A DNA stretch of 64,000 nt from Odiellus spinosus. Its lineage: Eukaryota > Arthropoda > Arachnida > Opiliones > Phalangiidae. A model generated the notes under the pieces. The model was not told the DNA's origin. It saw nothing but the letters and a program-made list of their open reading frames with translations, and searched no databases. How positions within the stretch are numbered: position 1 is the first letter of the stretch; each line of letters begins with the position of its first letter. This document shows, one piece after another, positions 1 to 61,116 of this stretch. Made by a program: the position numbers and the translations under genes. The stretch lies in NCBI GenBank assembly GCA_963920705.1, contig OY987234.1:21781794-21845793 (forward strand), in the 5' to 3' direction.

Positions 1-3000
1 ACGAGTGGGAATACGTATACTATAAGTTATGGGTGGTTAGGGTTTAGGGTATCCCCTCTCGTGTTATTTCGTCTCGGGCCCTTGGGTGACAGAAACGTTT
101 TGGACGAATATTGACCCTATTATATAAAAGGACCTCGACGACGACCTCTCATCCTCCGAGAGAGGAGCCACCGGTGACTGAAAGAAGAACGGAAAGCTAT
201 AAGTGAAGGGAAAAGGCGGGAAACTTATGGCCTCGTTTATACAGACTTCGTACGGACATTATTTTGGCGGGAAAAATATTGGATTTACATTGGAGGTTCA
301 CGCGAGGAAGCTTTTGTTCAGGGGCAATCTTATATAATGCTTTTTGTATCTTGCCCCTGTAGAAGTGTTTTACTAGCAGTGTTTTCACGCGCACTGTGAA
401 GCCTAACTTTAGGGTCAGTTGACAAGAACAAATCTATCTTTACCTAGAATGCAACAGTCAAAAAATAATTAAAAAATAACTACTTTATGTAAAAAACACC
501 TGTCATCTTTTAAAAGACAGACAGCCTCGTAATGAAAATTTTGGTTAAAAATTATATTGTATAACGATATAAGATAAAGCCAACTTATGTATATGTAATC
601 GTAACCAAATCTCTTGGCTTTTAAAGAGATTTAAAAACTGACAAATAACTCAGAGCGATTTTTCTCTCACTGAAACTCGTACCGGCTGAAAACGACGTAA
701 GAATCATTTTTGAAACTCAAGACTTTCCCTGCTAAATACATAAGGCTGCTTTGCTACGTGACTCTTCGTTAAACGGATGGCCTAAAGACTTTTAAAGAAC
801 TCATTTTTTCCCCACACCTAAAAAAAAATTACTTTTAATTCAAGGATAGATTGCAATGTAACTAAAAGCTGAACGTAAAGTGGGGAAAAATTGGTTTTTT
901 GCAACTCTTTTTCAAGAAAATAACTATTCGGGATCAAAAAGAGTTGTAATATACTATTTTCTTCTCTATGATGTTTAGTATGGTGTATTAATCCGCCTCA
1001 GCTTCTACCATTGAATAAAAGTGTTTAACAAGATTGATTTTTCCCTCCGGGCCTCTTATCTTAATTTTAAAGGGTTAGTGAAAGATTAAATCTTTATTTT
1101 TATTGAAATTATTCTCTAATCTTAAATAAATTAATAATTATTATTAATTCGCGTCAGAATCTATGACGTAGTTTATGATACTTTATCCTTAACCCTTGAC
1201 CTTCGACCTGATTAGGATTTAAAAGCATTTCAAAGCAAGAACATTGTTTTATGGGTTTTGTTTCGGTACAATTGAAAGTTGAATATAATCCAATCACCTA
1301 AATCCCTTGGGAAATCGATTTTAGTTAAGCGTTAAAGATTTTCGATTCAACTAACCACTAAGTAGATAGTTTTACTTTCGTGTTTACCCTCCCTTAAACC
1401 AAGAAGAAAAATCGTTCTGATAAAAGAAAAGATTTGAAAGAAAAGGAAAAAAAATTGTAAAAATGGTTAATAGGGATTTTTATACTGGTCTTAGCGCAAT
1501 CTTCAAGAAATTGAAGGGAGGGAGACCAAAATCTTATTACGTAAGGGGGTAGCCTGACGTCGAGTCATTATGATCGTCCTATTATTTTTTTTTTTTTCTT
1601 AAAGAATAAAAATTCTAGAAAAGGCTTGAATATAGTTTTTTTTTGGTTAAATTAGAAAGATTGAAAAATTGGAAAAAACGTGTATTTAACTTCTACTTTG
1701 CATCGGTCACGTGACAATATTAGTTATAATATAGGTATACGCGTTTTTCGTTCAATTTCACAAAAGCTTCGTTCACACTAACGTATCCAAAGCGCTTTTT
1801 TTGTGGAAGCGTAAGATTAGGGTTGAAAATAAGAATTATTTCTTTTTTGTACAATTGTCCAGTAACCTCCCTTCACAAATTAAGTTATTGGACATTAAAA
1901 TTATCAGACATTTTCAGAATTCCCTGTAGCAGTAAATACTTATTGGACAGTAACCCAGATCTCAAAAATGAAAAATTTTGGGACATTTAGAAAATTTATC
2001 TGGACAATGTCCAGTGTCCTGGTCGTCCTATGTTCGTTCTCGAGTTTAACCAATTAGTTCTTGTTAGTAATATCCCCAAGGTCTCGCCTCTGTGCCTTGA
2101 AGTTTACCGGCAGTTTTGAATCTGCCGAGTAAAGTTGAAGTATAGTTATTCTCATTATTTTTACGTGAAAAGCTAGGTTAGGCCCGAGTACTATATCACT
2201 CGGCGTAGAGTCCGTATTAATCAAGGAATTTCCGCTAATTAATGAAACTTCCCGGGAGCGCAACAGATCCAATAAAAAGAGGTTGCTGAGCTTTCTTTTT
2301 GAGGTTCTCATCCGCTTCCTATCCTCCCTTCCTTCCTTACACTCTTCCAAGTACTCGCGTACCCGTACTTCTAGCTTCCGCGATATAAAACGGGAGTTAG
2401 GCTCGTAAAAAGAATAAGGGGTTGGGCTGCGTGGCTAGAAATTGGCACGGATCCGAATTAACCCTGATCTACACCCCTCGTTTATTTCACTCTTCATCAG
2501 TGTTTATGTCCGCCCACTCCTTTGTTTTAACGACGAATAAGAAATTTCTTTCCTTCCCGCCAACAACTTCTTAAAGGACAAGTGACACGTGTCGTGACAG
2601 GCTTTCGATTGCCAACAAAATGTTTTCAGAGGGAGACAGAAGCCGATGAAACCCTCCTTTGAAGTCTATTACTCCCGGGTCTTGTCTATCCCTCTCTGTA
2701 TGGGTTATTCTCAAAAGGCGCGATTCGTACGCCTCCTAACGGTAGATGTTTTCGGAGCGGGAGCTCGTCGAGCGAATATCTCTAGCAGCCTTGGAGTTCG
2801 TCCAAAAGACGTCGTCGTTTGTGGAGAGAGAGAGAATTTCCAATTTTCCGTAGACAGGGGGGATGAAGTAGGACCCCTTCTAACTCGTAAAATTGGGAAT
2901 TTTACCCATACAGAGAGGAGCGCTATATGGAACATTGGAGTAGTAGACTTCAAAGGAGGGTTTCATCGGCTTCTGAGGGAGATCATAACGTAGCCAAGAA

Positions 3001-5389
3001 ATACTAGCAAAATCACTAAATCTTGATGGGTAACCAAGAACGGAGGGTTCATTTAAAAAACTGAAATAATTCGTAAGACGTATCCTTTACCGATCCCATA
3101 TACGACTTAGTCCTTTTTGTTGTAAAAGATAAGCATCTTTAAGCGCGCCCGCGATCTTAAGTCACTCATTGCCTTAATTTAGTCCGTTCATTGTCTCGAA
3201 ACGAACAAAAGAAAGGTGGGGAGAAAGATATGCCCTCGATGACGTCATTACAATCTATCTCTTACTTCCTGGGGTATACGTTTATTGTTTCTATAAAACC
3301 CAGTGTTTTCGGGGAAGAGCTTGAGTTTTGGGTTTGTCTATTCAAGTAGCCGCCTCGGGGGGTGATATCCCAGAGAGCTAACTTAGATACGAGAACCCGG
3401 AACGCGTACGTAAGCGTCTACCTTATACTTTAATCAGCCAGAAAAGTGTCACGTGATGAATGCGTTGTAGAAGTTAGTTTTCGAAAAGGGGTTTCTTTGT
3501 CTGAAAAAGGGGAAAGGCCTTTAGCTAGGTCGTTGATTAATGGGACCCGGGTCTCGGAGAGATTGAGAGCTAGACGTAGCCCTCCTTAAAACAAAACCCC
3601 GCCGTTCTTTCAAGACGGGGCGCTGCTGTTGGGCTCTAATTGAAGCAATCGAAACTGCCACCTTTTGAACGGCGCGCTTTCCCTTCTTTTGTTCGTAGGA
3701 CTTCTTACAACTTTTGAACTTAAGGATATTGGAAATTAAGTCGGGAAAAAGGAGACCCGGGCCAACCTCTTTTAATTGGAGGAGGCCTTTCATCGACACC
3801 TATAAGTGTCCCTCGACTCCTCGCTCGAGAAACCGTGATTTTTAATTCAAATTCGCTCCTATTTTCAGTTAAAATATGTCTCAAGTTCTTAGAAACTAAT
3901 TTACGAACAGTTTAATGCTGTCTCAATTATATTTGAATGCCTACGCAATCATTTTTTAGCGTACAAACTAAAATTATCAACCCTAGGTTTTTCGAATTTT
4001 CAAGAAAATATTTTTTCATATTTTTTTACCCCACTTTATCAAACGATAAAATTTTATCCAATCACCGAGTCGTATATAATTACAACCATGGAGTAATAAA
4101 AAAAGGAGCGTATTATTAATACATCATTAGAGATTGTTAAGAAACCTTAATCTCCTTGAGTTATTGCTCCACATCTGCAAAATTATTTTGCCCACCGGAA
4201 AAGGGGCGTAATATTTGGCAGTCCTGCTTTATAAATAAATCATTTCGTTAAGAGTCACCGCTGGAACCACATAGGTACGATTAACAAAATTGGGAGTTAC
4301 GTTAATTTTGTTCCGACTTACGTTAGGAAATTGGGAAAGAGAATTTGTCGGATTGTCTTGAATAATTTAAGTTTGGTTTTGGAAAATTCCCGAATTTGAA
4401 TCGTCGGACGAAGCGAGGTCTTAATTTAAAATTCAGTGTTTGTTCTTTTATTTTTAGTTTATAAAACTTTTATAATTATTCAATCGATGGTTTTCATTTA
4501 ATGTCGTTTTATTGTAGATTTGATTTTTAGTTTAGGCCCTTTTGAATTGGCTTTACAAATTTTTAATGGCGTATTCGCCGGCCTACTAACTTTGTACGGC
4601 CTGAATTTAATTAATGGAAATATCAAATTAAAGTTTGCCTAATTTTATTATCTACGTAAAAGTTATTAGTAATTTTATCGAAATTTTATTTCAAAATTAT
4701 GCGCTTAATTAACAAACGTTGGCTGAAAATTTGAATATAGTTAAAATCATAAGTAATATAATTAATATAAGTATGACACTTATTTTGTTTCAAAACTAAA
4801 TTTATTAGTCGAGTTGTGTTTCGTTGAGTGACAATGGAATGGGAAACTTGCAATTCTTTAGTCTCTATAATCATTCCCTTTTTATTTCATGGTGATTTTA
4901 AATTAACTAATTATTTTAGGCCTAATTTTCCAAACGCGAAAACCAATTAAAATCGTCAATGTTTCGGATTTGGCGGGAAAGACGTTTCCGAAGCGCGAGC
5001 TCGCCTGGGGGAGGGGGAGGGGGGAGTTTTACCTGTACCCCGTAAAGGTAGAGCAAGACGTAAAATTCATAGCGTCTCTTTTTAGGCCTAAATGGCGGGA
5101 AAACTTTTGTTTTATTACTTCGGTATGTCTTAATCTCACGAAAGCGCGTAGTTTTAGGTCTTTTTTTCGCGGGTAATTGATGACTAATCGAGGCTAGTGT
5201 CGAGGCGTCCGGAATTGGCTGCTCGTAGAGGGTTTTTTATAATGTATTTTCCGCGTAAGAAAGTTAAGTTATTATTCATAACATAATATTTTACCAAGGA
5301 AATGACACGTAGATTAGATTCTAACGTTATAGTTACAATTCTGTTCGTTAAGCCTAATTTTTTTATTTTCTTTTTTGCGTTCGCCACAG
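1..5389. other. Upstream or intronic sequence, no exon recognised
   Basis: No follistatin, NtA or other exon can be read on either strand. The first visible exon (5390) starts inside a codon, so its donor exon lies here unseen or further upstream. The stretch holds one family-A MITE (2637-2975). A fragment at about 1770 (cttcgttcacactaacg) resembles the ends of the 'gttcatactag' foldback family seen at 17865, 32642, 37573 and 51827. 4430-4920 is very AT-rich. The rest shows nothing I can name. Confidence 0.6.
2637..2975 (+). mobile_element. Foldback MITE family A, copy 1
   Basis: Non-autonomous element of 339 bp. Both ends carry the terminal inverted repeat CAGAAGCCGATGAAACCCTC, which extends to about 40 bp, followed after a divergent gap by a second inverted block around CTCTCTGTATGGGT. 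It is flanked by a perfect 7-bp duplication AGGGAGA (2630-2636 and 2976-2982). The 'plus' orientation used for this family is the one whose left end continues TATTACTCCCGGGTCTTG. It encodes nothing; the open frames over it are chance. Confidence 0.9.
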
Positions 5390-5973: not shown

Positions 5974-6312
5974 CAGAAGTAGATGAAACCCTCCTTTGAA
6001 GTCTACTACTCTAATGTTCGATATAGCGCTCCTCTCTGTATGGGTAAAATTCACGATTTTACGAGATCGGAGGGGTCCTACTTCATCCCCCCCCTGTCTA
6101 CGGAAAATTGGAAATTCTCTCTCTCCACAAACGACGACGTTTTTTTGACGAACTCCGAGGCTGCTAGAGATATTCGCTCGACGAACTCCCGCTCCGAAAA
6201 TATCTACCGTTAGGAGGCGAACGAATCGCGCCTTTTGAGAATAACCCATACAGAGAGGGGTAGACAAGACCTGGGAGTAATAGACTTCAAAGGAGGGTTT
6301 CATCGGCTTCTG
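5974..6312 (-). mobile_element. Foldback MITE family A, copy 2
   Basis: 339 bp, inverted relative to copy 1. Its left end reads CAGAAGTAGATGAAACCC (TA in place of CC) and its right end is the usual CATCGGCTTCTG. Perfect 7-bp target duplication ATATAAA (5967-5973 and 6313-6319). It lies 370 bp downstream of the first visible agrin exon. Confidence 0.9.
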
Positions 6313-6570: not shown

Positions 6571-7412
6571 TGCAGCCCCCATACAGCGCCCCTTAATAAT
6601 TGGTTAGTCAAAAAAATTGTCACTGATACCCGAGAATTTCTTGTTCATACTGTACCGAGTGATATGAGCTTTATGTCAGGTCGGTGTTGCGCGGGAAAAT
6701 TTAGCGGGAAATGTTTTTGGCGTTGTCAAATATAAAGGTTTAAAAACATCCACTCGTAATTTACGCTTAAACAAAGCTTGCACATTCTTTAGGGATTCTT
6801 ACGTTGTTAGAAAACAACAGGGACTGAAATTGAGTTTGAAGTCGTTTAGAAACTTAAGATGACGTAAACACTTTTCCAACGACTAGACGCGTGTCATCTT
6901 TAAAAATACCCTATCATAGTCAATTTCAATTTATATTGCTAGCACGCTCAAAGTTAGGCTTATATGTCCACACAGTTTATTTTAAGAAAGTCTATATAGC
7001 TTAAATTCGTAACGACTCTCAATTCAAGATGATAAAGACTAAACACGCGTAAAACCAATATTGCCAAGGCTTAGATTATTTATAATAGACTCCCATTAGC
7101 TCTATATTTTATCCCAGGGACTCTTGAAACTAGATAATTTTCTTATATAAAGAAAGGATTCTGAGTATGACAAGAGAAAAACTTGTAAAAAAATTGCTAA
7201 TTTGTCACTTTTTAATTAGTTTTTTGTTTTTATTACAAAAATAAACAGGCCCTTTTCTACGAAGTTTCCCAAAGGTTAGCTACGATTACACCTTTCACTT
7301 TTCATGTCTAAAATGAAAATATACAGCAAATTTTAGCTTTGAAGAAAAAGATCAATTTTATTTTTATTAAAAGTTTAATGACCCCTGAATAGGGGGCTTA
7401 ATTTCGCGTATA

Positions 7413-7995
7413 TGAAACGAGATTTATTATAAAAGGGGATTTAGTTAAGATTAGTTAATATTTAAAGGTCGGTTATATGTTTAGGGGAAGTTAATAATTA
7501 AAGTTAAATATGTCTCGTCATCATTAGATAATTAATAAAATATAGAAATAATGGTTTTTGTTAGTTAATATATAATTTAATATGGTACTAACAAAATAAT
7601 AATAAAAACACTAATAATAACACTGGCTGGCATATATTAAATAGTTAATAGTTCTTACTATTGTCCGCTGATGAAAGTAAGCGCGATAACGCGCACAACA
7701 CACGCACATATATTAATTTAACCCGGCGTAGAGGATTCTAAGTCCGGTTAGTTACGAGAAAGCGCGGGACCCCGAAGGGCCACGCGGTCGAAGAGACCAA
7801 CTCGGGAAAAACGTGGTCAGCGACCAGCCAGGAACGTAGAGTAAGGGTAAGAGCGGTTTTGCCACACGTGGCACGAGCTATTTAAGCGTGGCCACGTGTG
7901 ACGTCATTCAAAATATTCCGTACCAGCCAGGTGCAAAATAAAGGGTTAGGCCCAATAATATAAAGTAAGGGGAGCGTTCATAAAATACCGTTACA
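7413..7995 (-). repeat. LTR, left copy
   Basis: 583-bp long terminal repeat. On the minus strand it begins TGTAACGG and ends TTTCA. It is the 3' LTR if the minus strand is transcribed, since the purine tract abuts it. It carries a GC-richer block near 7740-7910 with a CACGTGGC/GCCACGTG inverted pair, a plausible regulatory part. Confidence 0.85.
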
Positions 7996-10529
7996 ACTCT
8001 CCCCCACTTAATCTCGAACGTCCTCGTTCGACAATATTAATATTTAAAAAAAAACTCATTAAGAGAAAAATAAGCAAAGCAACACAGCTAAACAAAAACT
8101 ACCACATAGGGCAGAAAAATAAAAGTGGTACAAGAAAATCCAAAAATAAAATATACAAAATACAAGAAATCAAAACAAAAACTACCGCGGAGGGCAGAAA
8201 ATAAAAGTGGTACCAAAAAAAAAAAGAACAAAACCTACAAAATACAAACAATTACAAATTTTACAAATAAAAAAAAAACTATCATAAGTATTGGGCAGAA
8301 AAAAAAAAATTAACAATAGCTTATAAAATAAAACTACCAAGGGGTAGAAAAAAATAAAATGGACAATCAAAACTACCATAATTAAGTATGGGTAGAAAAA
8401 TATACATATAAAAAGCTTAAAAAAACTACCTCGATCACGAAAGGCAGAAAAATTCCAAAAAAAAAAAAAACTTATCATAAACACAAAAAAAAAATTACAA
8501 AACAATATAAAAATAATAGGGCCTACCATAAAAATACAATTATACAAAAATTTAAATAGAACGACAGGTATACACACTGTAACGTTACTGACGGTTCATT
8601 TCATGAGTTTACCTAATACCCAAAGGTTAAAAATTCAGAGTTGACCTAATACTCAAAGGTTAAAAATTCAGAGTTGACCTAATACTCGAAGGTTAAAATT
8701 CAGAGTTCCCTACTCTAAAATCATGGGTTCCCTACCCAAAAACAATGCCATGGAATAAAACCACATATATAACGGCAGATTCAAATATTAACCCTACGAC
8801 TTACGCCAACATTAAAAAGGTGGTCACACAGACTAATGGGCTAATTAAGCACTACAAATAGGGAAAATACGAACAATTAAAACTCACTACTTGCCACATA
8901 AACAAGAGGAAAACAAGATTAAAGGGTGGAATTGGTGTTCTCGTTGAGACTAAAGAATGGCAATACCAACCCTCATTTAAAAAAACTAAAAAATCATATT
9001 AACCCCAAATCTACGATAAATTAATCTATGCCTGCCTCGTGTGCGATGGGCCTTTGCGGATGTATACACGATCCTAAGGTAAAAGCTAAGGTCAGAACAT
9101 TGAGATGAGTGAATTCGCAGAAAGGACTAAATGACACTATTGACATACGAAAATTACGAAGGAATAAAATCCTGACACAAATTAAGAAAAAAAAAAAAAT
9201 CTAATTTACACTAAATATAAAGGACCTACACTGGAAAATAACAAAAGACATAATTAAAAAAAAAAAATCTATATACAAAACTTATCAAAAACAAATTCGC
9301 AGAACGGGTTAAAATATTCTGTCACTAAGGACCTAAACTACTAGGAAATTAAATCCTAATTACCTAATCAAAAAAATAAGCTAACGGCATAATACCTTTA
9401 AAAAAAATCGAAGTACAAAACCTACACTGGGGTAAACTAAAGGCACACTACCTTCAAAAAAAAATTCTAAATACTATCCAAAGGAAAAATAAATAACATA
9501 CAATAGTGGTCAGGGGCTAAATTAGGAATTGCAAATTAAAAAAAAAATGAGGTAATAAAAATTTAAATTTAACAAACTGGCATACTATGAAAAGTATAAA
9601 CGGGGGGGGGGGTAAAAATCTAAGAAATAAAACTAGGGTTAAGCACACGTGGGGAAATTTCAAGAGAGGTGTTTCCAAGAAAATGTTTCCGAACTACCAG
9701 CGTCCGAAAACACCTGCAAGGCCCAGCGGGGAAAATGCGTCCATTTTTAGCGCTAAGAACCAAAACTTGAGAAAATTATCTTTCCACGAGGAGCTAACAA
9801 TAGCCATGAAACTAGTTTTACAGGGGGGAATTTCGAAGAAAAAAAAAAAAGAATTTCAAATTGAATGGAAAATTCATAAAATTCGAAGGGGGACTAGAAA
9901 TTTAAATTTCGCAGTGCTAAATATTTAAAATATCCTAATGAGCTACTCTGCACAAAACAAAAACTAGAACTTAATAATGGGGCCCTAAACTTAACGATTA
10001 ACGTAGAATTTTTATTCTGATATTGCGATACTAGAGATAAAATGGCCATTCAAAATAACCACATCAAGAATCGTAGGAGCACACCAAAAACCCAACGAGA
10101 ACAAAAATTAAAGGGGATTTTTAAACGGGAAGCATGACCAACTAATTAAAACGAAATTTAAGCGCATAACTTTAAAAATACGGAAATCTAAGTTTCCAAA
10201 ATAAAATACGATAACAATTAAAAATCAATAACCTAAAATTACGTTAAAGGTCATTCAAAATTACAAATGATTAAATTATAATGGGGCAAATATCAATTAA
10301 AACTGGTATGAAAATATGCAACTATAGAAAAATACGATAAATATACAAACATAAAGCTAACCTGAATTTTACAAAATGCTAATGCCACAAAAAAAAGTCT
10401 TAAAAGTTCAGTAGTGTTCAATAATATGGCAAGAACAGATTAAAGAAAGTAATTAAAATAAAGGGCAAAAGTAATAGACCCGGTGAACTATATATATATA
10501 GAATTCGGTCACGGAACGGACCCCCAAAA

Positions 10530-11112
10530 TGAAACGAGATTTATTATAAAAGGGGATTTAGTTAAGATTAGTTAATATTTAAAGGTCGGTTATATGTTTA
10601 GGGGAAGTTAATAATTAAAGTTAAATATGTCTCGTCATCATTAGATAATTAATAAAATATAGAAATAATGGTTTTTGTTAGTTAATATATAATTTAATAT
10701 GGTACTAACAAAATAATAATAAAAACACTAATAATAACACTGGCTGGCATATATTAAATAGTTAATAGTTCTTACTATTGTCCGCTGATGAAAGTAAGCG
10801 CGATAACGCGCACAACACACGCACATATATTAATTTAACCCGGCGTAGAGGATTCTAAGTCCGGTTAGTTACGAGAAAGCGCGGGACCCCGAAGGGCCAC
10901 GCGGTCGAAGAGACCAACTCGGGAAAAACGTGGTCAGCGACCAGCCAGGAACGTAGAGTAAGGGTAAGAGCGGTTTTGCCACACGTGGCACGAGCTATTT
11001 AAGCGTGGCCACGTGTGACGTCATTCAAAATATTCCGTACCAGCCAGGTGCAAAATAAAGGGTTAGGCCCAATAATATAAAGTAAGGGGAGCGTTCATAA
11101 AATACCGTTACA
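10530..11112 (-). repeat. LTR, right copy
   Basis: Same length and, as far as read, the same sequence as the left copy. On the minus strand this is the 5' LTR, with the possible primer-binding site just inside it near 10505-10529. Confidence 0.85.
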
Positions 11113-13652: not shown

Positions 13653-13933
13653 CAAGAAGGATCAGATAAGGAGAGGAAATGTGGGGCTGCGTTGAGTTAG
13701 AGAGAGAAGAGCCAACCTCCCACTCGGGTGGAAAGGGGGGATAGGAAATTCTCGAGGTAAACTGTTCTCACGTGGTCGCTAGCTAGCGCGTCTCATAAAG
13801 GATTCGTTTTACCCACGTGACAACATTTTACCACGAAACGTCTCTACCCCCGTTCTCCCAGAGTGGGAGTTTAGGCCGACGCAGTAGGAACCGCGCAGTC
13901 CCCACATTTCCTCTCCTTATCTGATCCTTCTTG
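13653..13933 (+). mobile_element. Foldback MITE family B, copy 1
   Basis: 281 bp. Terminal inverted repeat CAAGAAGGATCAGATAAGGA continues into GAGGAAATGTGGG and is mirrored exactly at the right end. Perfect 7-bp duplication TTTAAAT (13646-13652 and 13934-13940). The interior has a palindromic GCTAGCTAGC and a CACGTG pair, making the element nearly a single long hairpin. The 'plus' orientation is the one whose left arm reads GGGGCTGCGTTGAG. Confidence 0.9.
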
Positions 13934-17455: not shown

Positions 17456-17790
17456 CAGAAGCCGATGAAACCCTCCTTTGAAGTCTATTACTCCCGGGTC
17501 TTGTCTACCCCTCTCTGTATGGGTTATTCTCAAAAGGCGCGATCCCTACGCCTCCTAACGGTAGATGTTTTCGGAGCGGGAGCTCGTCGAGCGAATATCT
17601 CTAGCAGCCTCGGAGTTCGTCCAAAAAACGTCGTCGTTTGTGGAGAGAGAATTTCCAATTTTCCGTAGACAGGGGGTATGAAGTAGGACCCCTCCGATCT
17701 CGTAAAATTGGGAATTTTACCCATGCAGAGAGGAGCGCTATATGGAACATTGGAGTAGTAGACTTCAAAGGAGGGTTTCATCGGCTTCTG
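17456..17790 (+). mobile_element. Foldback MITE family A, copy 3
   Basis: 335 bp with CAGAAGCCGATG / CATCGGCTTCTG ends and a perfect 7-bp duplication CTTAATC (17449-17455 and 17791-17797). Same orientation as copy 1. Confidence 0.9.
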
Positions 17791-18460: not shown

Positions 18461-18721
18461 CCCAGTTTTTTAGCGAGTAACGAGTATAGGTCAAAGTTTT
18501 TTTGCAAGAAACTATTAAAGGTTAAATTATGGTATATAAATATGAACTAATTCAAATAATAATTATTCCGTGAAAATGGGGTCAGAGTACTCGTTTGTCG
18601 GTTAGGTTAGGTTGTTTAATCTATTTATAATCGTTATTACGAAGTTGACCAATTGGGAAACGATCAAATGCACCCTTTGTTTTCGGTAATTTGGGATTAG
18701 GCATCAATCATTTGATCCCTT

Positions 18722-20729: not shown

Positions 20730-21147
20730 CAGAGGTATATAATAACCCCCTTCGGGGGGAAGTATGAAAGCCCCTATACTACCAATGCTAAAAATCACGA
20801 ACAACGAGAGCCCGCTGCTGACTATCTAGGCCACTAGCTCGCGCTGGACTTCTCAATGTCGCTACTCTAGTAAATGGTCTTTGTATCAACAAGACGGCTC
20901 GATTTGTGTTTAGAACTTCCTGTCTCGGGAATCAGGCTGTCTGTTAAATTGGAGTCGAAGGTTGACTTCAGCTCGCGAGTTCCGGAAGTGCGCGTAGGGA
21001 AAATTTAGTGAGGTTCAAATGGTGTAACTATTTTTTGGGAGTAAAGCGGCGTGTCGATCCGCCGCGATTTACGCCGGGCACTTGTTGTTCGTCGATTTTG
21101 CCTACCTTTCATACTTCCCCCCCGAAGGGGGTTATTATATACCTCTG
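20730..21147 (+). mobile_element. Foldback MITE family E, copy 1
   Basis: 418 bp. Termini CAGAGGTATATAATAACC and its inverse; the arm continues through CCCTTCGGGGGGAAGTATGAAA and is mirrored at the right. Perfect 7-bp duplication GTTTTAC (20723-20729 and 21148-21154). CAGAGGT termini resemble hAT elements, but hAT normally duplicates 8 bp. Confidence 0.88.
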
Positions 21148-22397: not shown

Positions 22398-22815
22398 CAG
22401 AGGTATAAAATAACCCCCTTCGGGGGGAAGTATGAAAGCCCCTATACTACCAATGCTAAAAATCACGAACAACAAGAGCCCGCTGCTGACTATCTAGGCC
22501 ACTAGCTAGCGCTGGACTTCTCAATGTCGCTACTCTAGTAAATGGTCTTTGTATAAACAAGACGGCTCGATTTGTGTTTAGAACTTCCTGTCTCGGGAGT
22601 CAGGCTGTCTGTTAAAATGGAGTCGAAGGTTGACTTCAGCTCGCGAGTTCCGGAAGTGCGCGTAGGGAAAATTTAGTGAGGTTCAAAATGGCGTAACTAT
22701 TTTTTGGGAGTAAAGCGGTGTGTCGATCCGCCGCGATTTACGCCGGGGACTCGTTGTTCGTCGATTTTGCCTACCTTTCATACTTCCCCCCGAAGGGCGT
22801 TATTATATACCTCTG
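22398..22815 (+). mobile_element. Foldback MITE family E, copy 2
   Basis: 418 bp, same length and orientation as copy 1 and only slightly diverged from it. Perfect 7-bp duplication GTAAAAT (22391-22397 and 22816-22822). Confidence 0.88.
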
Positions 22816-28091: not shown

Positions 28092-28410
28092 CAGAAGTAG
28101 ATGAACCCTCCTTTGAAGTCTACTACTCTAATGTTCCATAAGGCGCTCCTCTCTGTATGGGTAAAATTCACGATTTTACGAGATCGGAGGGGTCCTACTT
28201 CAGGAAAATTGGAAATTCTCTCTCTCCACAAACGACGACGTTTTTTTGACGAACTCCGAGGCTGCTAGAGATATTCGCTCGACGAACTCCCGCTCCGAAA
28301 ATATCTACCGTTAGGAGGCGTACGAATCGCGAGTTTTGAAACTAACCCATACAGAGAGGGGTAGACAAGACCCGGGAGTAATAGACTTCAAAGGAGGGTT
28401 TCATCGGCTT
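28092..28410 (-). mobile_element. Foldback MITE family A, copy 4 (right end shortened)
   Basis: 319 bp. The left end CAGAAGTAGATGAA is intact; the right end stops at CATCGGCTT without the last CTG, and no matching 7-bp duplication can be read. An internal deletion also removes the 'catcccccctgtct' section seen in other copies. It sits directly beside the 31-bp satellite, so rearrangement there may have taken the end. Confidence 0.85.
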
Positions 28411-33386: not shown

Positions 33387-33723
33387 CAGAAGGCGATGAA
33401 ACCCTCCTTTGAAGTCTACTACTCTAATGTTCCATATAGCCCTCCTCTCTGTATGGGTAAAATTCCCAATTTTACGAGATCGGAGGGGTCCTACTTCATC
33501 CCCCCTGTCTACGGAAAATTGGAAATTCTCTCTCTCCACAAACGACGACGTTTTTTTGACTAACTCCGAGGCTGCTAGAGATATTCGCTCGACTAACTCC
33601 CACTCCGAAAGTATCTACCGTTAGGAGGCGTACGAATCGCGCTTTTTGAAACTAACCCATACAGAGAGGGGTAGACAAGACCAGGGAGTAATAGACTTCA
33701 AAGGAGGGTTTCATCGGCTTCTG
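33387..33723 (-). mobile_element. Foldback MITE family A, copy 5
   Basis: 337 bp. Ends CAGAAGGCGATG and CATCGGCTTCTG. Perfect 7-bp duplication GTTTGGT (33380-33386 and 33724-33730). Confidence 0.9.
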
Positions 33724-34012: not shown

Positions 34013-34305
34013 CAAGAAGGATCAGATAAGGAGAGGAAAAGTGGGAACGGCGCGGCTCCTACTGCGTCGGCCTAAACTCCCACTCTGGGAGAACGGGGGA
34101 CAGACGGGGGTAGAGATGCTTCGTGGTAAATTGTTGTCACGTGGGTAAAACGAATCCTTTATCAGACGCGCTAGCTAGCGACCACGTGACAACAGTTTAC
34201 CTCGAGAATTTCCTATCCCCCCCTTTCCACCCGAGTGGGAGGTTGGCTCTTCTCTCTCTAACTCAACGCAGCCCCACTTTTCCTCTCCTTATCTGATCCT
34301 TCTTG
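34013..34305 (-). mobile_element. Foldback MITE family B, copy 2
   Basis: 293 bp, inverted relative to copy 1 (left arm reads GTGGGAACGGCGCGG). Perfect 7-bp duplication ACGCGAC (34006-34012 and 34306-34312). Confidence 0.9.
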
Positions 34306-39634: not shown

Positions 39635-39915
39635 CAAGGAGGATCAGAGAAGGAGAGGAAATGTGGGGCTGCGTTGAGTTAGAGAGAGAAGAGCCAACCT
39701 CCCACTCGGGTGGAAAGGGGGGATAGGAAATTCTCGAGGTAAACTGTTGTCACGTGGTCGCTAGCTAGCGCGTCTCATAAAGGATTCGTTTTACCCACGC
39801 GACAACATTTTACCACGAAACGTCTCTACCCCCGTTCTCCCAGAGTGGGAGTTTAGGCCGACGCAGTAGGAACCGCGCCGTCCCCACATTTCCTCTCCTT
39901 CTCTGATCCTCCTTG
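39635..39915 (+). mobile_element. Foldback MITE family B, copy 3
   Basis: 281 bp. Both ends carry the same paired variant (CAAGGAGGATCAGAGAAGG and its inverse) relative to the other copies, so the two termini have changed together. Perfect 7-bp duplication ACGAGAC (39628-39634 and 39916-39922). Confidence 0.9.
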
Positions 39916-42647: not shown

Positions 42648-42985
42648 CAGAATCCGATGAAACCCTCCTTTGAAGTCTACCACTCCAATGTTCCATATAG
42701 CGCTCCTCTCTGTATGGGTAAAATTCCCAATTTTACGAGTTAGAAGGGGTCCTACTTCATCCCCCTGTCTACGGAAAATTGGAAAATCTATCTCTCCACA
42801 AACGACGACGTTTTTTTTGGACGAACTCCGAGGCTGCTAGAGATATTCGCTCGACGAGCTCCCGCTCCGACAATATCTACCGTTAGAAGGCGTACGGATC
42901 GCGCCTTTTGAGAATAACCCATACAGAGAGGGGTAGACAAGACCCGGGAGTAATAGACTTCAAAGGAGGGTTTCATCGGCTTCTG
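42648..42985 (-). mobile_element. Foldback MITE family A, copy 6
   Basis: 338 bp; ends CAGAATCCGATG and CATCGGCTTCTG. The flanking 7-mers are GTGAGAC (42641-42647) and GTGAAAC (42986-42992), one mismatch, so this insertion is older than the perfect ones. Confidence 0.88.
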
Positions 42986-43030
42986 GTGAAACCAAAAGCG
43001 AAAGGTTATTTTTAATATGTCCTTTTAAGA

Positions 43031-43104: not shown

Positions 43105-43394
43105 CATGGATTAATCAACATCACTGGGATAATTCACTCTGGTACGATTTGCTATACTAGTAGTTTGTTTCAAACATGGCTGCCAGACATTTTATCCGGC
43201 CCCTCAATTTTACCCACTTACCGGAAGTAATCCATGAGAGCATCGTCTGCTTTAGAGTTTTTTCCCCTTCAATATTTCACCCCGTGTATCGGTAGCTAGA
43301 AACTTCCGGTGTAGACAATTTTTGTCACCAGGGTGTGATTCGAACAATCAATTTACCAGAGTGAAATTATCCCTGTGAGGTTGATTAATCCATG
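43105..43394. mobile_element. Foldback MITE family M, nested in family C
   Basis: 290 bp. Ends CATGGATTAATCAAC and GTTGATTAATCCATG; the arms continue about 40 bp through GGGATAATT and CACTCTGGTA and are mirrored near 43355. Perfect 7-bp duplication ATCCACC (43098-43104 and 43395-43401), which falls inside the family-C arm, proving insertion after family C. Confidence 0.87.
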
Positions 43395-44217
43395 ATCCAC
43401 CTCAAAGCTCAAAATCAAGAAGTGTAAGTTTCAAAATTCCTTGACACGTCTAGGTCACGTGGAATGACCCACTTCATTTTGCTTTTCACCTTCCTTTTAA
43501 CTGGTCTTCCCCTCTCCTTCCTTTAACTTTAAAGCAACGAAGTCTTGTTGTATATACTGTAGGGACTAGGCATCTTTCGCGATTTATGAGGCACCGTTTT
43601 CCTTCCAAAGGCCCAAAATGATTTACATTTTCAACCTTTTCCCCGTAACGCTATTAAAATACAGTTCTAACCTCTTCCCCCTCGAGAAATTTCTAAGAGG
43701 ATTCGTTAAGGTATATTCTACTAGATAAAGACCATGGGTTTATAGTTCGTAGTTAAAAGCGAAAGGAAGGCTGCAATGCCCAAAAACAAATTAATTTTAG
43801 ATGACGAGTCTCGTGGGAAATCATGTTTTCATTCGTTTATTGACTTAAGTCAGGAAAGATTGAAGTGTTATGATAACCTCATCACTCTTATCTTTTATCC
43901 AATTTATCTCTTATCGAAGCTATATACTTAGATAAATTATGTAGCCTGAAACTTTATAATACAAATAAGATTTAGAAATTAAAGTCCAAAAATGTTTTCT
44001 AGAAATTTTCATAATTAATTTCTAATTAACCAATCAGGTAAACTCCTTTAACCCAATTGTCCATCAATTTATAACGACCTCGTTCACGCTATCTGGTGAC
44101 GATTTTATGAAACTACATCTCGTTAGCACTCATTTCAGGCTGAAATATGATTGGTCGAAATTGACACTAAATTCAAAGTTAACCCAACTTTACAATTTAA
44201 GTTTAGTCAGAAGCCGA

Positions 44218-44542
44218 TGAAACCCTCCTTTGAAGTCTATTACTCCCGGGTCTTGTCTACCCCTCTCTGTATGGGTTATTCTCAAAAGGCGCGATTCGTA
44301 CGCCTCCTAACGGTAGATGTTTTCGGAGCGGGAGCTCGTCGAGCTAATATCTCTAGCAGCCTTGGAGTTCGTCCAAAAACGTCGTCGTTTGTGGAGAGAG
44401 AATTTCCAATTTTCCGTAGACAGGGGGGGATGAAGTAGGACCCCTTCTAACTCGTAAAATTGTTAATTTTACCCATACAGAGAGGAGCGCTATATGGAAC
44501 ATTGGAGTAGTAGACTTCAAAGGAGGGTTTCATCGGCTTCTG
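44218..44542 (+). mobile_element. Foldback MITE family A, copy 7
   Basis: 325 bp, ends CAGAAGCCGATG / CATCGGCTTCTG. Flanking 7-mers GTTTAGT (44211-44217) and GTTTAGC (44543-44549), one mismatch. Confidence 0.88.
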
Positions 44543-46548: not shown

Positions 46549-46884
46549 CAGAAGCCGATGAAACCCTCCTTTGAAGTCTATTACTCCCTGGTCTTGTCTA
46601 CCCCTCTCTGTATGGGTTATTCTCAAAAGGAGCGATTCGTACGCCTCCTAACGGTAGATGTTTTCGGAGCGGGAGTTCGTCGAGGGAATATCTCTAGCAC
46701 CCTTGGAGTTCGTCCAAAAACGTCGTCGTTTGTGGAGAGAGAGAATTTCCAATTTTCCGTAGACAGGGGGGATGAAGTAGGACCCCTTCTAACTCGTAAA
46801 ATTGGGAATTTTACCCACACAGAGAGGAGCGCTATATGGAACATTGGAGTAGTAGACTTCAAAGGAGGGTTTCATCTACTTCTG
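46549..46884 (+). mobile_element. Foldback MITE family A, copy 8
   Basis: 336 bp; left end CAGAAGCCGATG, right end CATCTACTTCTG. Flanking 7-mers GCATAAT (46542-46548) and GTATAAT (46885-46891), one mismatch. Confidence 0.88.
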
Positions 46885-48092: not shown

Positions 48093-48429
48093 TAGAAGTA
48101 GATGAAACCCTCCTTTGAAGTCTACTACTCTAATGTTCCATATAGCGCTCCTCTCTGTATGGGTAAAATTCCCAATTTTACGAGATCGGAGGGGTCCTAC
48201 TTCATCCCCCCTGCCTACGGAAAATTGGAAATTCTCCCTCTCCACAAACGACGACGTTTTTTTGACCAACTCCGAGGCTGCTAGAGATATTCGCTCGACG
48301 AACTCTCGCTTCGAAAATATCTACCGTTAGGAGGCGTACGAATCGCGCTTTTTGAAACTAACCCATACAGAGAGGGGTAGACAAGACCCGGGAGTAATAG
48401 ACTTCAAAGGAGGGTTTCATCGGCTTCTG
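48093..48429 (-). mobile_element. Foldback MITE family A, copy 9
   Basis: 337 bp. The left end starts TAGAAGTAGATG (first base changed), the right end is CATCGGCTTCTG. Flanking 7-mers ATTATAG (48086-48092) and ACTATAG (48430-48436), one mismatch. Confidence 0.87.
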
Positions 48430-52184: not shown

Positions 52185-52517
52185 CAGAAGCCGATGAAAC
52201 CCTCCTTTGAAGTCTACTAAGTCTCTAATGTTCCATATAGCGCGCCTCTCTGTATGGGTAAAATTCCCAATTTTACGAGATCGGAGGGGTCCTACTTCAT
52301 ACCCCCCCTGTCTACGGAAAATTGGAAATTCTCTCTCTCCACAAACGACGACGTTTTTTTTGACGAACTCCAAGGCTGCTAGAGATATTCGCTCGACGAA
52401 CTCCCGCTCCGAAAATATCTACCGTTAGGAGGCGTATGAATCGCCCTTTTTGAAACTAACCCATACAGAGAGGGGTAGACAAGACCCGGGAGTAATAGAC
52501 TTCAAAGGAGGGTTCTG
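52185..52517 (-). mobile_element. Foldback MITE family A, copy 10
   Basis: 333 bp. The left end is CAGAAGCCGATG; the right end has lost the TCATCGGCT section and closes GGGTTCTG, yet the 7-bp duplication GTATTAA (52178-52184 and 52518-52524) is perfect. The terminal deletion therefore did not touch the outermost bases. Confidence 0.88.
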
Positions 52518-54086: not shown

Positions 54087-54424
54087 CAGAAGCCGATGAA
54101 ACCCTCCTTTGAAGTCTATTACTCCCGGGTCTTGTCTACCCCTCTCTGTATGGGTTAGTTTCAAAAAAGCGCGATTCGTACGCCTCCTAACGGTATATAT
54201 TTTCGGAGCGGGAGTTCGTCGAGCGAATATCTCTAGCAGCCTTGGAGTTCGTCAAAAAAACGTCGTCGTTTGTGGAGAGAGAGAATTTCCAATTATCCGT
54301 AGACAGGGGGTATGAAGTAGGACCCCTCCGATCTCGCAAAATTATGAATTTTACCCATACAGAGAGGAGCGCTATATGGAACATTAGAGTAGTAGACTTC
54401 AAAGGAGGGTTTCATCTACTTCTG
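54087..54424 (+). mobile_element. Foldback MITE family A, copy 11
   Basis: 338 bp; left end CAGAAGCCGATG, right end CATCTACTTCTG. Perfect 7-bp duplication GCATCAC (54080-54086 and 54425-54431). Confidence 0.9.
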
Positions 54425-55832: not shown

Positions 55833-56788
55833 GTAAGTTAATGAAGTTATTCCAATTAACCTGCGTAGAAATTGCTATAATTTTTTGGCATAAAAGATTC
55901 GAATGTTTTTGAGCAAATAATTCCATTTTTGGAAACAAATCTCTACGAATGATCCAACATTTCGACACTTTTTTGGAAATGTTGCGTTGAATATAGAAAA
56001 ATTACAGCCTTATGTATTTCTTAATATTGCCTGTAAAAATGTTTTTCCTGCCGCGCGGTAATGTGTATGGGGAAGCCTGTATTTAGGGGTAAATGTCTTA
56101 AAGTGTTCAACTTTGAACTCAATTATAGTTAAAATTACAAATTATTTTATAATGATTTATATCTACAATCAAGAAGGATCAGATAAGGAGAGGAAAAGTG
56201 GGGCTGCGTTGAGTTAGAGAGAGAAGAGCCAACCTCCCACTCGGGTGGAAAGGGGGGGATAGGAATTTCTCGAGGTAAACTGTTGTCACGTGGTCGCTAG
56301 CTAGCGCGTCTCGTAAAGGATTCGTTTTACCCACGTGACAACAATTTTCCACGAAGCATCTCTACCCCCGTCTGTCCCCCGTTCTCTCAGAGTGGGAGTT
56401 TAGGCCGACGCAGTAGGAGCAGCGCCGTTCCCACTTTTCCTCTCCTTATCTGATCCTTCTTGCTACAATATAATTAAAATTAAAATGACACAAAGTGCTT
56501 CATAAAAAATGAACGAATCTTACAAGTTAGTTATTCCTGCGCAAGACTTTTATTTTAGTAAACGTTTTAGACAAATTAGACCGAACAACGTGGTAAAAAA
56601 TGCCGTCATAAGGTTAGCCTCATTTTTGTAGTATTGGTACCTTTATAATTTTTATTTTAATGTTTGTATTGTGTTACATTATTATTTACTAATCCTTTAT
56701 TTGTATATATTATATAAGTTATATATTTATTTTTCACGAGAACAATTTGATTAATCAAACTTTTCCACGTATATTGGAACGATAACAG
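55833..56788 (+). other. Agrin intron, 956 bp, inside an FS module
   Basis: Phase-1 intron that splits the Kazal loop after ANDG. About a third of it is MITE B copy 4. No exon seen in the rest. Confidence 0.8.
56170..56462 (+). mobile_element. Foldback MITE family B, copy 4
   Basis: 293 bp with CAAGAAGGATCAG ends and a perfect 7-bp duplication CTACAAT (56163-56169 and 56463-56469). The left arm is of the GGGGCTGCG type and the right arm keeps the longer 'gtctgtcccccgttctc' section, like copy 2. Confidence 0.9.
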
Positions 56789-57273: not shown

Positions 57274-57951
57274 GTCTCTATATTTTTTACGTATTCTTCC
57301 ATTCGCTTTTACCAGCTTTTCTTTCGTGTAGACTCAAATCTTAGGCTTATATTTTCTACGCTAGGTATTAACATTAAAACGGTGAAAAGAGATTATTTTT
57401 TATATATTCTTATTACGCGTAATGAAGATATGATAGTGATTTATATATAGCTTAATTACTAATTTCATAAAACCTTAAATGACTTTAACTAACCGAATTT
57501 CGGGCTGGTTACGACTGATAGTTAAATGTTACAAATGCAACCACACTTGAAAATATCTTGAGTCACGGACTATGGTATTTAAACCCGCAAATTTCGGCTT
57601 TCATGGGGGTGCTGGCCAAAGACCTCCGTGATAAAGACCAGTTGTAGTTTTATTGCCATTAACTAGACGGTAATATTTAAGATAAATTTATCTATATAAA
57701 CAAATTTCCGGGTGGTAGCCTACTTTTGGAAAAGAATCAACACATAAAAATGGTCTCTTTAATAAATTATGCAAGCTAGTTGAGGATTAATATTGTTATT
57801 TTCTAATTTATTCAACCTTCAAATAAATTATCGAAGTTAATCGCAAAAGCCGTTCGTATTTTTTTGTATCTGACCTACAACACATTCTCTTATTATCTAT
57901 GGTTTTTCTTTCTTTGTCATTCCCTTTGCGGTGTTTCTGGTTTGTGTACAG
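57274..57951 (+). other. Agrin intron, 678 bp
   Basis: Non-coding; no repeat recognised. Confidence 0.75.
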
Positions 57952-58104
57952 ACGCGCGAATTCCTTCGACGCCTTGTGACGGCGAAGTTCCTCTGGTGGA
58001 CCCTGTTACGGGTCAAGACTACGATTGTTCCCACGGGAGGAAAAACTGTCCTCCTAATAGTTACTGTCATAAAACTAACTCTTTCGCTAAATGCTGTCGG
58101 GAAG
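57952..58104 (+). CDS. AGRN: Agrin exon: lustrin-like Cys-rich module
   Basis: 153 nt, phase 1-1, acceptor gtttgtgtacag, donor GTATTT at 58105. It encodes about 51 residues: a start DARIPSTPCDGEVP, then DPVTGQDYDC, NCPPNSYC and FAKCC, six cysteines. The layout C-DG-P, C, NCP-SYC and FxKCC is that of the lustrin-type cysteine-rich modules found in many invertebrate extracellular proteins. The corresponding place in vertebrate agrin, between FS8 and the CCxD segment, has only a short Pro-rich link, so this module is extra. Identification of the family is from memory of the motif and not from a search. Confidence 0.8.
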
Positions 58105-58302
58105 GTATTTTTTCCATTTTTTTATACTTTTTTTACTCTGGCCTCTCTCTAGTCTCTTTCCAACTCCTGAACTTTCTTCCATTCCAAGTCATTTATCTTT
58201 TTGTTTTCAACTACCAAATAAAAAAAAAACATTTCCCGCTTCTGAAGTAATTTAATGTTCTTTTTTTACTCCGTTTTTTAATGGTTTATTTCACGGTGGC
58301 AG

Positions 58303-59360: not shown

Positions 59361-59789
59361 GTAATTACAATCTCTTACGTCACCTTCATTTAAATGTTTA
59401 GCCACTAGTCCAATAACTGCTCTAAATTATAATTTTAAATTTAATGACCATCCTGATTAACTTATAATATTATTAAATTAATTAACGAGACTGCTACTTT
59501 GTAATTAAGAAAAATTGTTCTATCTGGTGTGACGTAGAATATTACTGATGACTTTCGCGAGGTTAAACTTTGACCTCTTTTAGTAATTTGTTCAATTTTA
59601 AATTAAAAATTACCATTTTGGTAATGTTACGAAAGTAATCAGAAAATTACCATTACCAAAGTAATTTAGTTACTCAAAATAAATTACTTAAAATGTTAGT
59701 ATAGGATTTTATCAAAAGTTCATAATTTATTCTAGAAAAGTAATTAACACCCATAGCGAAATTAAAGGTCGTTTTCAATTTCTTGATAG
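59361..59789 (+). other. Agrin intron, 429 bp
   Basis: AT-rich. It contains a short imperfect palindrome near 59600-59680 (ttaccattttggtaatgtta ... attaccattaccaaagtaat). No exon. Confidence 0.75.
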
Positions 59790-60035
59790 AGTCAATCGCT
59801 CGAACGGTACCGGGTACTTGCGTTCATTTAACTTGTCTACATGGCGCCGTGTGCCGCGAGAAAGACGAGAGAGCTCAGTGCATTTGCGATAACGTTTGCA
59901 TGAATGGAGAACACAATCAACAAACCGTCTGCGGGTCGGACGGTACAACCTACGGTTCCGAATGTCAACTGCAACTTTTCAGTTGTAGATATCAGAAAAC
60001 CATTACAGTATGGGCGCAGGGCGCTTGTCAAAAAG
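59790..60035 (+). CDS. AGRN: Agrin exon: follistatin-like module after the laminin-EGF pair (FS9)
   Basis: 246 nt, phase 1-1, acceptor caatttcttgatag, donor GTAAGA at 60036. After a short link (ESIARTVPG) come ten cysteines: TCVHLTCLHGAVC in the FOLN half and TVCGSDGTTYGSECQLQLF in the Kazal half, ending GACQK. An FS module placed after two laminin-EGF modules is diagnostic of agrin. The GSDGTTYGSECQL run closely matches vertebrate FS9 (GSDGVTYGNECQL). The other frames over this exon are shadows. Confidence 0.92.
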
Positions 60036-60441
60036 GTAAGAATAATTCTCCATTTATCTCCGACCACAATTTTCGTCCGCATGCCTTTACTTTTTGTTGT
60101 TTTTGGGTTTACCTTTTGCAAGTTAACTCCCGGGTAAAGGTTGGGAGATTAGTCTAAAAAGTTAAGGTAATCTAAGGGCACTCAATATCTCCTCTTAATA
60201 GTTAAGAGACCCTAATAGTTAAGGACCTTTTTTAAAAAAATTTATTTGAGAATTATCTCGACTAGTCAAATCTACCAAAGAAAATTTGGAAATTAGAAAT
60301 TGGTTACCGGTACCTTATATATACGATATGTAACGTAGATTTTCGAAATCTTTTTAAAGTGGTATTTCTTTTTGATTTGGCAACCCTTGTGGACAATTTA
60401 TACCTTTCAAGGGTTAAATGTAGTCGACACTCTGGTTTTAG
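60036..60441 (+). other. Agrin intron, 406 bp
   Basis: Non-coding; no SEA-like or EGF-like exon visible. Confidence 0.75.
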
Positions 60442-60651: not shown

Positions 60652-61116
60652 GTAAGACTTACTCTTTGATTTACCGTTTATTTTAACTCGTATAAAATAC
60701 TAGGCCTAATAACTTTTTGAAATATTTTCGAAACCAAATATCAAGAAGGATCAGATAAGGAGAGGAAAAGTGGGAACGGCGCGGCTCCTACTGCGTCGGC
60801 CTAAACTCCCACTCTGGGAGAACGGGGGTAGAGATGCTTCGTGGTAAATTGTTGTCACGTGGGTAAAACGAATCATTTATGAGACGCTAGCTAGCGACCA
60901 CGTGACAACAGTTTACCTCGAGAATTTCTTATCCCCCTTTCCACCCGAGTGGGAGGTTGGCTCTTCTCTCTCTAACTCAACGCAGCCCCACTTTTCCTCT
61001 CCTTATCTGATCCTTCTTGCAAATATGAACGGTCTTGACTTTTCCTTTAATTTCAATTTGTTTAAAACTCGGTGTTAGTAATCGACCGGCTTTCTTTTTA
61101 CTATAACTCGAAGTAG
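60652..61116 (+). other. Agrin intron, 465 bp, mostly a MITE
   Basis: About 60% of this intron is MITE B copy 5. The rest (60652-60734 and 61027-61116) has no room for a SEA module. Confidence 0.8.
60742..61019 (-). mobile_element. Foldback MITE family B, copy 5
   Basis: 278 bp, inverted relative to copy 1, with CAAGAAGGATCAG ends and a perfect 7-bp duplication CAAATAT (60735-60741 and 61020-61026). It is the 3'-most member of the family, 98 bp upstream of the LG1 exon. Confidence 0.9.

What the first reader, a model, noticed from the sequence alone, without database searches (positions are those of the whole stretch)
2637..61019. Four unrelated MITE families share 7-bp target duplications, CA...TG ends and an RYNNNRY target
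Families A (11 copies), B (5), E (2) and M (1) have different terminal repeats (CAGAAG, CAAGAAGG, CAGAGGTATA, CATGGATTAA), yet each starts CA, ends TG and is flanked by 7-bp duplications. Readable sites: AGGGAGA, ATATAAA, CTTAATC, GTTTGGT, GTGAGAC, GTTTAGT, GCATAAT, ATTATAG, GTATTAA, GCATCAC (A); TTTAAAT, ACGCGAC, ACGAGAC, CTACAAT, CAAATAT (B); GTTTTAC, GTAAAAT (E); ATCCACC (M). Over these 18, position 1 is a purine in 14, position 2 a pyrimidine in 16, position 6 a purine in 16 and position 7 a pyrimidine in 14: a palindromic RYNNNRY preference. A 7-bp stagger is uncommon (hAT and P give mostly 8, Mutator about 9, Dada 6-7). One transposase type, possibly undescribed, may drive all four.
Basis: partly seen in the sequence, partly recalled or inferred. 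Interest (0 to 1): 0.72.

Follow-up and report, generated by a model that had tools for sequence, protein, structure and literature searches.

The report
P-type MITEs with 7-bp duplications
Four families of short, non-coding jumping-DNA copies in this animal genome share a 7-base insertion scar and one target motif, and both match the behaviour of P-element-type transposons in the same genome, so this is a richly documented new case of a known kind, not a new class of transposon.

Summary
Of 132 distinct copies of families A, B, E and M held here, 107 have an exact 7-bp duplication, 15 have one mismatch, 10 neither. All four prefer the same palindromic target: T at position 2 in 85 of 107, A at position 6 in 82 of 107. 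But 7 bp with GTNNNAC-like targets is the published habit of two P-superfamily elements, 1360 (GTTNAAC) and Galileo (GTANTAC), and this 443-Mb genome holds at least 150 P-transposase RNase H matches. Two resident P families could be delimited. One (3.8 kb, CGGTGCC ends) has exact 7-bp TSDs at 4 of 4 sites read. The other (5.67 kb, CA...TG ends) has them at 4 of 4 P-gene-bearing copies and at 4 of 4 shorter elements with the same ends. Their targets fit the MITE motif. A, B, E and M are therefore most likely P-superfamily MITEs. No P gene bounded by their ends was found, so the direct link is inferred. Short end-to-end junctions that look like P-type excision scars support this for B; those of E fit less well.

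The parts
2637..2975 (.). Family A MITE, TSD AGGGAGA
   Evidence: exact 7-bp TSD
5974..6312 (.). Family A MITE, TSD ATATAAA
   Evidence: exact 7-bp TSD
17456..17790 (.). Family A MITE, TSD CTTAATC
   Evidence: exact 7-bp TSD
28092..28410 (.). Family A copy, right end short of its last bases, no duplication readable
33387..33723 (.). Family A MITE, TSD GTTTGGT
   Evidence: exact 7-bp TSD
42648..42985 (.). Family A MITE, TSD GTGAGAC/GTGAAAC
   Evidence: 6 of 7
44208..44542 (.). Family A MITE, TSD GTTTAGT/GTTTAGC
   Evidence: 6 of 7
46549..46884 (.). Family A MITE, TSD GCATAAT/GTATAAT
   Evidence: 6 of 7
48093..48429 (.). Family A MITE (begins TAG), TSD ATTATAG/ACTATAG
   Evidence: 6 of 7
52185..52517 (.). 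Family A MITE with a small deletion inside its right repeat, TSD GTATTAA
   Evidence: exact 7-bp TSD at the corrected right end
54087..54424 (.). Family A MITE, TSD GCATCAC
   Evidence: exact 7-bp TSD
13653..13933 (.). Family B MITE, TSD TTTAAAT
   Evidence: exact 7-bp TSD
34013..34305 (.). Family B MITE, TSD ACGCGAC
   Evidence: exact 7-bp TSD
39635..39915 (.). Family B MITE, TSD ACGAGAC
   Evidence: exact 7-bp TSD
56170..56462 (.). Family B MITE, TSD CTACAAT
   Evidence: exact 7-bp TSD
60742..61019 (.). Family B MITE, TSD CAAATAT
   Evidence: exact 7-bp TSD
20730..21147 (.). Family E MITE, TSD GTTTTAC
   Evidence: exact 7-bp TSD
22398..22815 (.). Family E MITE, TSD GTAAAAT
   Evidence: exact 7-bp TSD
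43105..43394 (.). Family M MITE, TSD ATCCACC
   Evidence: exact 7-bp TSD

Best explanation
A, B, E and M are non-autonomous, non-coding MITEs mobilised in trans by P-superfamily (THAP9/P-element type) transposases of the 1360/Galileo-like kind that cut their target with a 7-bp stagger. Steps: the transposase pairs the two inverted ends, cuts the element out, and joins the 3' ends to a palindromic TnnRTNNNAYnnA-like target on opposite strands 7 bp apart; gap filling makes the 7-bp duplication. After excision the donor break is mended by end joining, which leaves both duplications around a short piece of each end. Shown here: the 7-bp duplications, the shared target, and resident P-transposase elements with the same duplication length and target. 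Inferred: that these or sister P transposases moved A, B, E and M, and that the short end-to-end junctions are excision scars.
For: (1) 107 of 132 distinct copies have exact 7-bp TSDs; none of length 5, 8 or 9. (2) Shared palindromic target: T2 85 of 107, A6 82 of 107; each leave-one-family-out model recognises the left-out family. (3) The genome has at least 150 PF21787 (P RNase H) matches: 150 of 386 candidates were scored and all 150 listed are over Pfam's cut-off. (4) P family 'L092': 3777 bp, identical 30-bp ends, 794-aa ORF with THAP, RNase H and GTP-binding-insertion domains, similar to the solved P transposase 6p5a (E=3e-21). Its exact 24-base end occurs as 7 inverted pairs (3777 bp x3, 3768, 2996 x2, 12,993) and all 7 enclose a PF21787 match. 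The 4 copies whose edges were read have exact 7-bp TSDs TTTGAAG, ATTATAC, GTTTTAC, ATACAGA. (5) P family 'g1': CATAGACTAAG...CTTAGTCTATG ends; 4 copies of 5670 bp, each enclosing a PF21787 match, with exact 7-bp TSDs ATATTAT, GTCTGTC, CTTAGAC, ATACATC; four shorter elements with the same ends and no listed PF21787 match (1219, 654, 50, 39 bp; the two longer interiors not read) also have exact 7-bp TSDs GTAATAG, CTTCATC, ATTTTAC, ATTTTAC. So a P-gene-plus-miniature series with CA...TG ends exists here. (6) The 12 P target sites score far above random 13-mers on the model built from the MITEs (mean 3.4 against -3.4; 0 of 100,000 resamples). (7) Published: 1360 TSD 7, GTTNAAC; hobo (hAT) TSD 8, GTNCGNAC; Galileo TSD 7, GTANTAC. 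(8) B end-to-end junctions: 54 in the genome; the 50 listed are all 21-35 bp although 20-50 was allowed, and 32 are exactly 23 bp, the only join with 3 or more bases of microhomology in that range. P transposase cuts 17 nt inside its ends (PMC7776569, passages), so about 34 bp at most should remain.
Against: No P-transposase gene bounded by A, B, E or M ends was found. Eleven P loci were read (L091-L101); only two families could be delimited and neither has these ends. Of 3162 exact B ends only the first 100 were listed, all on C1: 40 of the 41 adjacent inward pairs are spaced as in a MITE (256-269 between starts; the other is 484 kb), the 8 inward pairs at 1-15 kb all span full MITE pairs or clusters, and the nearest of 36 listed C1 P matches is 31 kb from a B end. 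L092 ends are CGG...CCG, so CA...TG is not universal among P elements here. One of the 12 P sites (CTTCATC) is ordinary (0.23 of random score as high). E junctions (14 sites: one of 28 bp, 13 of 42-50 bp) exceed the 34 bp that a 17-nt cut allows, so the scar reading does not hold simply for E. The duplications around B and E junctions could not be read.
Confidence: 0.86

Rival explanations
1. They are hAT MITEs from a hAT lineage with a 7-bp stagger: hAT targets are nTnnnnAn, and hAT ends are often CA...TG (recalled), so a one-base shorter stagger would look like this.
For: hAT transposases are present: 150 PF05699 matches listed, of 220 candidates. hobo's target GTNCGNAC (earlier NTNNNNAN) shares the outer GT...AC.
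Against: hobo gives 8 bp in 1,196 of 1,198 sites (PMC3276498). The one hAT-like MITE seen here (L093:3283-3953, ends TAGGGGTG; called hAT-like by me from its 8-bp duplication ATTATCAC and from memory) has 8 bp, not 7. Delimited P elements give 7 bp with the same target. Junctions keeping 10 or more bases of both ends are not expected of hAT (recalled). No hAT coding element was read here.
Confidence: 0.08
2. An undescribed transposase superfamily with a 7-bp stagger and CA...TG ends drives the four families.
For: No autonomous partner was found for any of the four.
Against: A known superfamily, abundant in the same genome, already shows the same stagger, target and, in one family, CA...TG ends.
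Confidence: 0.04
3. Different superfamilies converge on 7 bp and the likeness of targets is loose.
For: M's flank position -3 differs (A 0.50, T 0.40, against T 0.59-0.74 in A, B and E).
Against: Leave-one-out models transfer between all families, M included.
Confidence: 0.02

Closest known systems
1360/Hoppel (P superfamily, Drosophila)
   Same: 7-bp duplication (274 of 279 sites); target GTTNAAC (PMC3276498, passages)
   Different: TIR sequences were not compared here; 1360 is a Drosophila element, the host here is an unnamed animal
Galileo (P superfamily, Drosophila)
   Same: 7-bp duplication, target GTANTAC/GTATTAC, 15-bp palindromic motif (PMC4168063, passages)
   Different: Galileo has very long, internally repeated TIRs (abstracts); these have 33-41 bp
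P-MITEs of Anopheles gambiae
   Same: MITEs derived from P elements, several families living beside P masters (PMC1562414, passages)
   Different: 8-bp duplications and 5-310 copies per family; here 7 bp and roughly 1,600 copies' worth of exact B ends (3162); masters of A, B, E and M not found here
Zebrafish Pdre2 / THAP9
   Same: P superfamily, CA...TG ends (CATACCTGTCAAC) (PMC10983969, passages)
   Different: 8-bp duplication, 13-bp TIR

Membership tests
P superfamily | 7- or 8-bp target duplication | tested here: met
   107 of 132 exact 7 bp
P superfamily | palindromic GTNNNAC-like target extending beyond the duplication | tested here: met
   literature
P superfamily | ends shared with an element that encodes a THAP/RNase H/GTP-insertion transposase | tested here: inconclusive
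P superfamily | excision with a long (17-nt) staggered cut inside the ends | tested here: inconclusive
   B junctions 21-35 bp (50 of 54 listed) fit; E junctions 42-50 bp (13 of 14) do not fit simply
P superfamily | GTP-dependent transposition | not testable with these tools
   needs biochemistry
hAT superfamily | 8-bp (some 5-6-bp, recalled) duplication nTnnnnAn | tested here: not met
   no flush exact duplication of 5, 8 or 9 bp among 132 copies; one of 6 bp, L082, a copy with an altered first base
hAT superfamily | ends shared with a hAT-transposase gene | not tested
   hAT matches listed were not read
Dada superfamily (6-7-bp TSD, recalled) | Dada transposase and insertion into RNA genes | not tested
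   no Dada search was made; the window, which holds 19 copies, has no tRNA or Rfam match

The most novel reading that the evidence does not exclude
A P-superfamily lineage far from the Drosophila elements spawned several very high-copy MITE families, and the genome keeps a fossil record of its excisions: dozens of 21-35-bp end-to-end scars of family B, nearly two thirds at one microhomology, within the size limit expected of P's 17-nt staggered cut, so that this cut and its mending could be read from an assembly alone. The g1 family even leaves 31-50-bp scars between intact 7-bp duplications.
Probability: 0.5. Interest if true: 0.5.

Novelty: new member of a known kind. Interest (0 to 1): 0.34.

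Why it matters
It explains a striking regularity (four unrelated-looking repeat families, one scar, one target) by a known but easily missed rule: P-type transposons can cut with a 7-bp stagger. That gives annotators a simple test (7-bp TSD plus T2/A6 target) for P-derived MITEs, which could otherwise be taken for hAT. The short junctions suggest that excision and break repair by P transposases can be studied from fossil scars.

Tried and rejected
A possible long A-type element, L098:4562-5201, begins like family A, but only its first 95-105 bp recur among the 40 scored candidates (of 706), so I take it for a truncated A copy.

P loci L093-L101 (9 of the 11 read): no convincing terminal repeats with 7- or 8-bp duplications in the roughly 5 kb read; the relaxed search gave a few weak pairs (at most 13 of 16 in L097) and was not run on L098-L101. 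L093's P gene region carries a hAT-like MITE just behind the point where its listed match ends. A, B, E and M end 14-mers: none at 12 of 14 or better in L091-L097; in L098-L101 only the A copy reached 12 (several 11-of-14 matches).

Junction search in the DNA held (363,904 bases): besides four g1 junctions, one old A junction (L021:2572-2608, 37 bp, flanks alike at 5 of 7) and one unconvincing M match (L028). A first unsupervised scan timed out; a seeded rerun worked (A 25, B 28, E 23, M 1, L092 1 with 7-bp duplications; a few rows shifted by a chance base).

The first counts (82 of 104 exact) used a wrong right end for copy 52185 and were replaced. The motif model uses 81 distinct 13-mers from that first set. 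Mutator, Merlin and Dada were set aside on duplication length from memory only. PMC12910113 and PMC2872659 (passages) did not bear on the question.

Full report
Check of the observation. The 18 listed duplications are real: 14 are exact and 4 match at 6 of 7 bases (copy 52185 ends at 52517 and then shows GTATTAA on both sides). The window lies at C12:21781794-21845793 of a 443-Mb assembly in 286 contigs. Best-match searches, which score only 40 candidates each, gave 40 copies each of A, B and E at 98-100% identity and, besides the window copy, 39 of M at 90-92%. The exact 24-base end of B occurs 1595 times forward and 1567 times in reverse, against 0 for the pattern read backwards: ends for roughly 1,600 copies.

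Test beyond the window. In all DNA held (window plus fetched loci) there are 132 distinct copies with both ends: A 42, B 37, E 32, M 21. Exact 7-bp duplications flank 107, a further 15 differ at one base, 10 do not match. Exact flush duplications of length 5, 8 or 9 number 0, and of length 6 number 1 (L082, an M copy with an altered first base). The sample is of the closest copies, so it says little about old ones. Among the 107, position 2 is T in 85 and a pyrimidine in 100; position 6 is A in 82 and a purine in 97. Outside the duplication, T at -3 and A at +3 are favoured in A, B and E, not clearly in M. A target model trained on three families recognises the fourth in all four cases (0 of 20,000 resamples each). 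Terminal inverted repeats are 33-41 bp.

What else in this genome does that. hAT (PF05699) and P (PF21787) transposase matches are both abundant, 150 listed for each, of 220 and 386 candidates. I read 11 P loci (L091-L101); no hAT locus was read. Two P families could be delimited. 'L092' is 3777 bp with identical 30-bp ends (CGGTGCCTCC...) and a 794-aa ORF with THAP (PF05485), RNase H (PF21787) and GTP-binding-insertion (PF21788) domains; it matches the solved P transposase 6p5a (E=3e-21). Its exact 24-base end occurs as 7 inverted pairs and all 7 enclose a PF21787 match. The four copies whose edges I read have four different exact 7-bp duplications: TTTGAAG, ATTATAC, GTTTTAC, ATACAGA. 'g1' has CA...TG ends (CATAGACTAAGAACGGG, 25 exact occurrences: 8 outer pairs, 8 inner forward matches and one single end on C12). 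Four copies of exactly 5670 bp each enclose a PF21787 match, one of them with a stop codon inside that match. Their duplications are ATATTAT, GTCTGTC, CTTAGAC, ATACATC; elements of 1219 and 654 bp with the same ends, interiors not read, have GTAATAG and CTTCATC. The ORF read in g1 (844 aa, similar to 6p5a at E=8e-20) has no match to the last RNase H domain, so the full protein may be spliced; this was not followed. The other nine P loci gave no convincing ends in the stretch read. The twelve P sites (4 of L092, 4 of 5670-bp g1, 4 of shorter g1 elements) score well above random sequence on the model built from the MITEs (mean 3.4 against -3.4, 0 of 100,000 resamples; one site, CTTCATC, is ordinary at 0.23).

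Comparison with what is known. In D. melanogaster resequencing data hobo (hAT) gives 8 bp with GTNCGNAC, P gives 8 bp with GTCCGGAC, and 1360 (P superfamily) gives 7 bp with GTTNAAC (PMC3276498, passages with its tables 3 and 4). Galileo, also P superfamily, gives 7 bp, rarely 8, with GTANTAC or GTATTAC (PMC4168063, passages). P-derived MITE families beside their masters are described in Anopheles gambiae, with 8-bp duplications (PMC1562414, passages). Zebrafish Pdre2 begins CATACC and has 8 bp (PMC10983969, passages). So length and target together point to the 1360/Galileo type of P element, and the host's own P elements agree. The two delimited P transposases are only 27% identical, so several lineages are likely to be involved, each with its own ends.

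How it most likely works. A P-type transposase recognises the MITE ends, excises them and inserts them at a palindromic site with strand transfers 7 bp apart. P transposase is known to cut 17 nt inside the end on one strand (PMC7776569, passages), so end joining after excision should leave both duplications with up to 17 nt of each end (inference). Junctions of this kind exist. Within and outside g1 there are 31-, 31-, 39- and 50-bp end-to-end remnants, 4 of 4 between exact 7-bp duplications (CTTCTTA, TTCTTAC, ATTTTAC, ATTTTAC); the 39- and 50-bp ones exceed 34 bp. For B there are 54 such places; the 50 listed measure 21-35 bp although 20-50 was allowed, and 32 are exactly 23 bp, the only join with 3 or more bases of microhomology in that range. 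For E there are 14: one of 28 bp and 13 of 42-50 bp, five of them 45 bp long, the length of the 5-base CCCCC/GGGGG microhomology join; the one 45-bp site whose letters were shown differs from that join at one base, and the join needs 29 and 21 nt of the ends, more than 17. E is therefore evidence against a simple 17-nt rule, unless repair copied more of the element or that family's cut differs. Flanks of the B and E junctions could not be read, so 'excision scar' is an inference for them; extreme internal deletion is the alternative.

What is not shown. No coding element with A, B, E or M ends was found. Only the first 100 of 3162 exact B ends were listed, all on C1: of 41 adjacent inward pairs 40 have MITE spacing and one spans 484 kb; the 8 inward pairs at 1-15 kb all span full MITE pairs or clusters; and none of the 36 C1 P matches listed lies closer than 31 kb to a B end. 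Plain end searches were not made for A, E or M. The species is unknown to me. That a 7-bp P-MITE set of this size is not described rests only on the listings of searches in an open-access library.

Verdict. This is a new, large set of P-superfamily MITEs with 7-bp duplications.

Noticed in passing
L091:4035-4065 and 4074-4104 (inside the 5670-bp g1 element): Two 31-bp end-to-end g1 remnants side by side, each between exact 7-bp duplications; one search puts end matches at the same two inner offsets (3399, 3438) in all four 5670-bp copies, so the remnants seem to have been carried along by transposition.
   Followed up: partly
L119, L120 (C12:16352249-16352287, C16:15226951-15227000): 39- and 50-bp palindromic g1 remnants, both with the duplication ATTTTAC: excision scars or extremely small mobile copies.
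   Followed up: partly
L093:3283-3953: A hAT-like MITE (ends TAGGGGTGTGCGAGTACTCG, 8-bp duplication ATTATCAC) lies in a P-transposase gene region, overlapping the end of its 609-aa ORF.
   Followed up: no
L045, L046, L055: Small inverted-repeat elements of 174-206 bp with AAACTTACC ends, each preceded by TAAATTTA; as that word is its own reverse complement it is probably part of the repeat and the true ends lie further out.
   Followed up: no
window 26189-28000, 30426-31118, 18678-19020: Tandem arrays with units of 31, about 16-20 and 15 bp.
   Followed up: no
window 49169-49609, 57864-58247, 59783-60154: Exon-like ORFs with Kazal domains (two) and a weak lustrin-type cysteine-rich match (one, below Pfam's cut-off), perhaps exons of one secreted multidomain protein gene.
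   Followed up: partly
window 7412-7711 and 10529-10828: Direct repeat of at least 300 bp at 100% identity, 3.1 kb apart.
   Followed up: no
G000:C1, 0-20.3 Mb: Of the first 100 listed B ends 15 lie at 3.2-15 Mb, where 32 of the 36 listed C1 P matches lie: MITEs and transposase genes seem to occupy different parts of the chromosome.
   Followed up: partly
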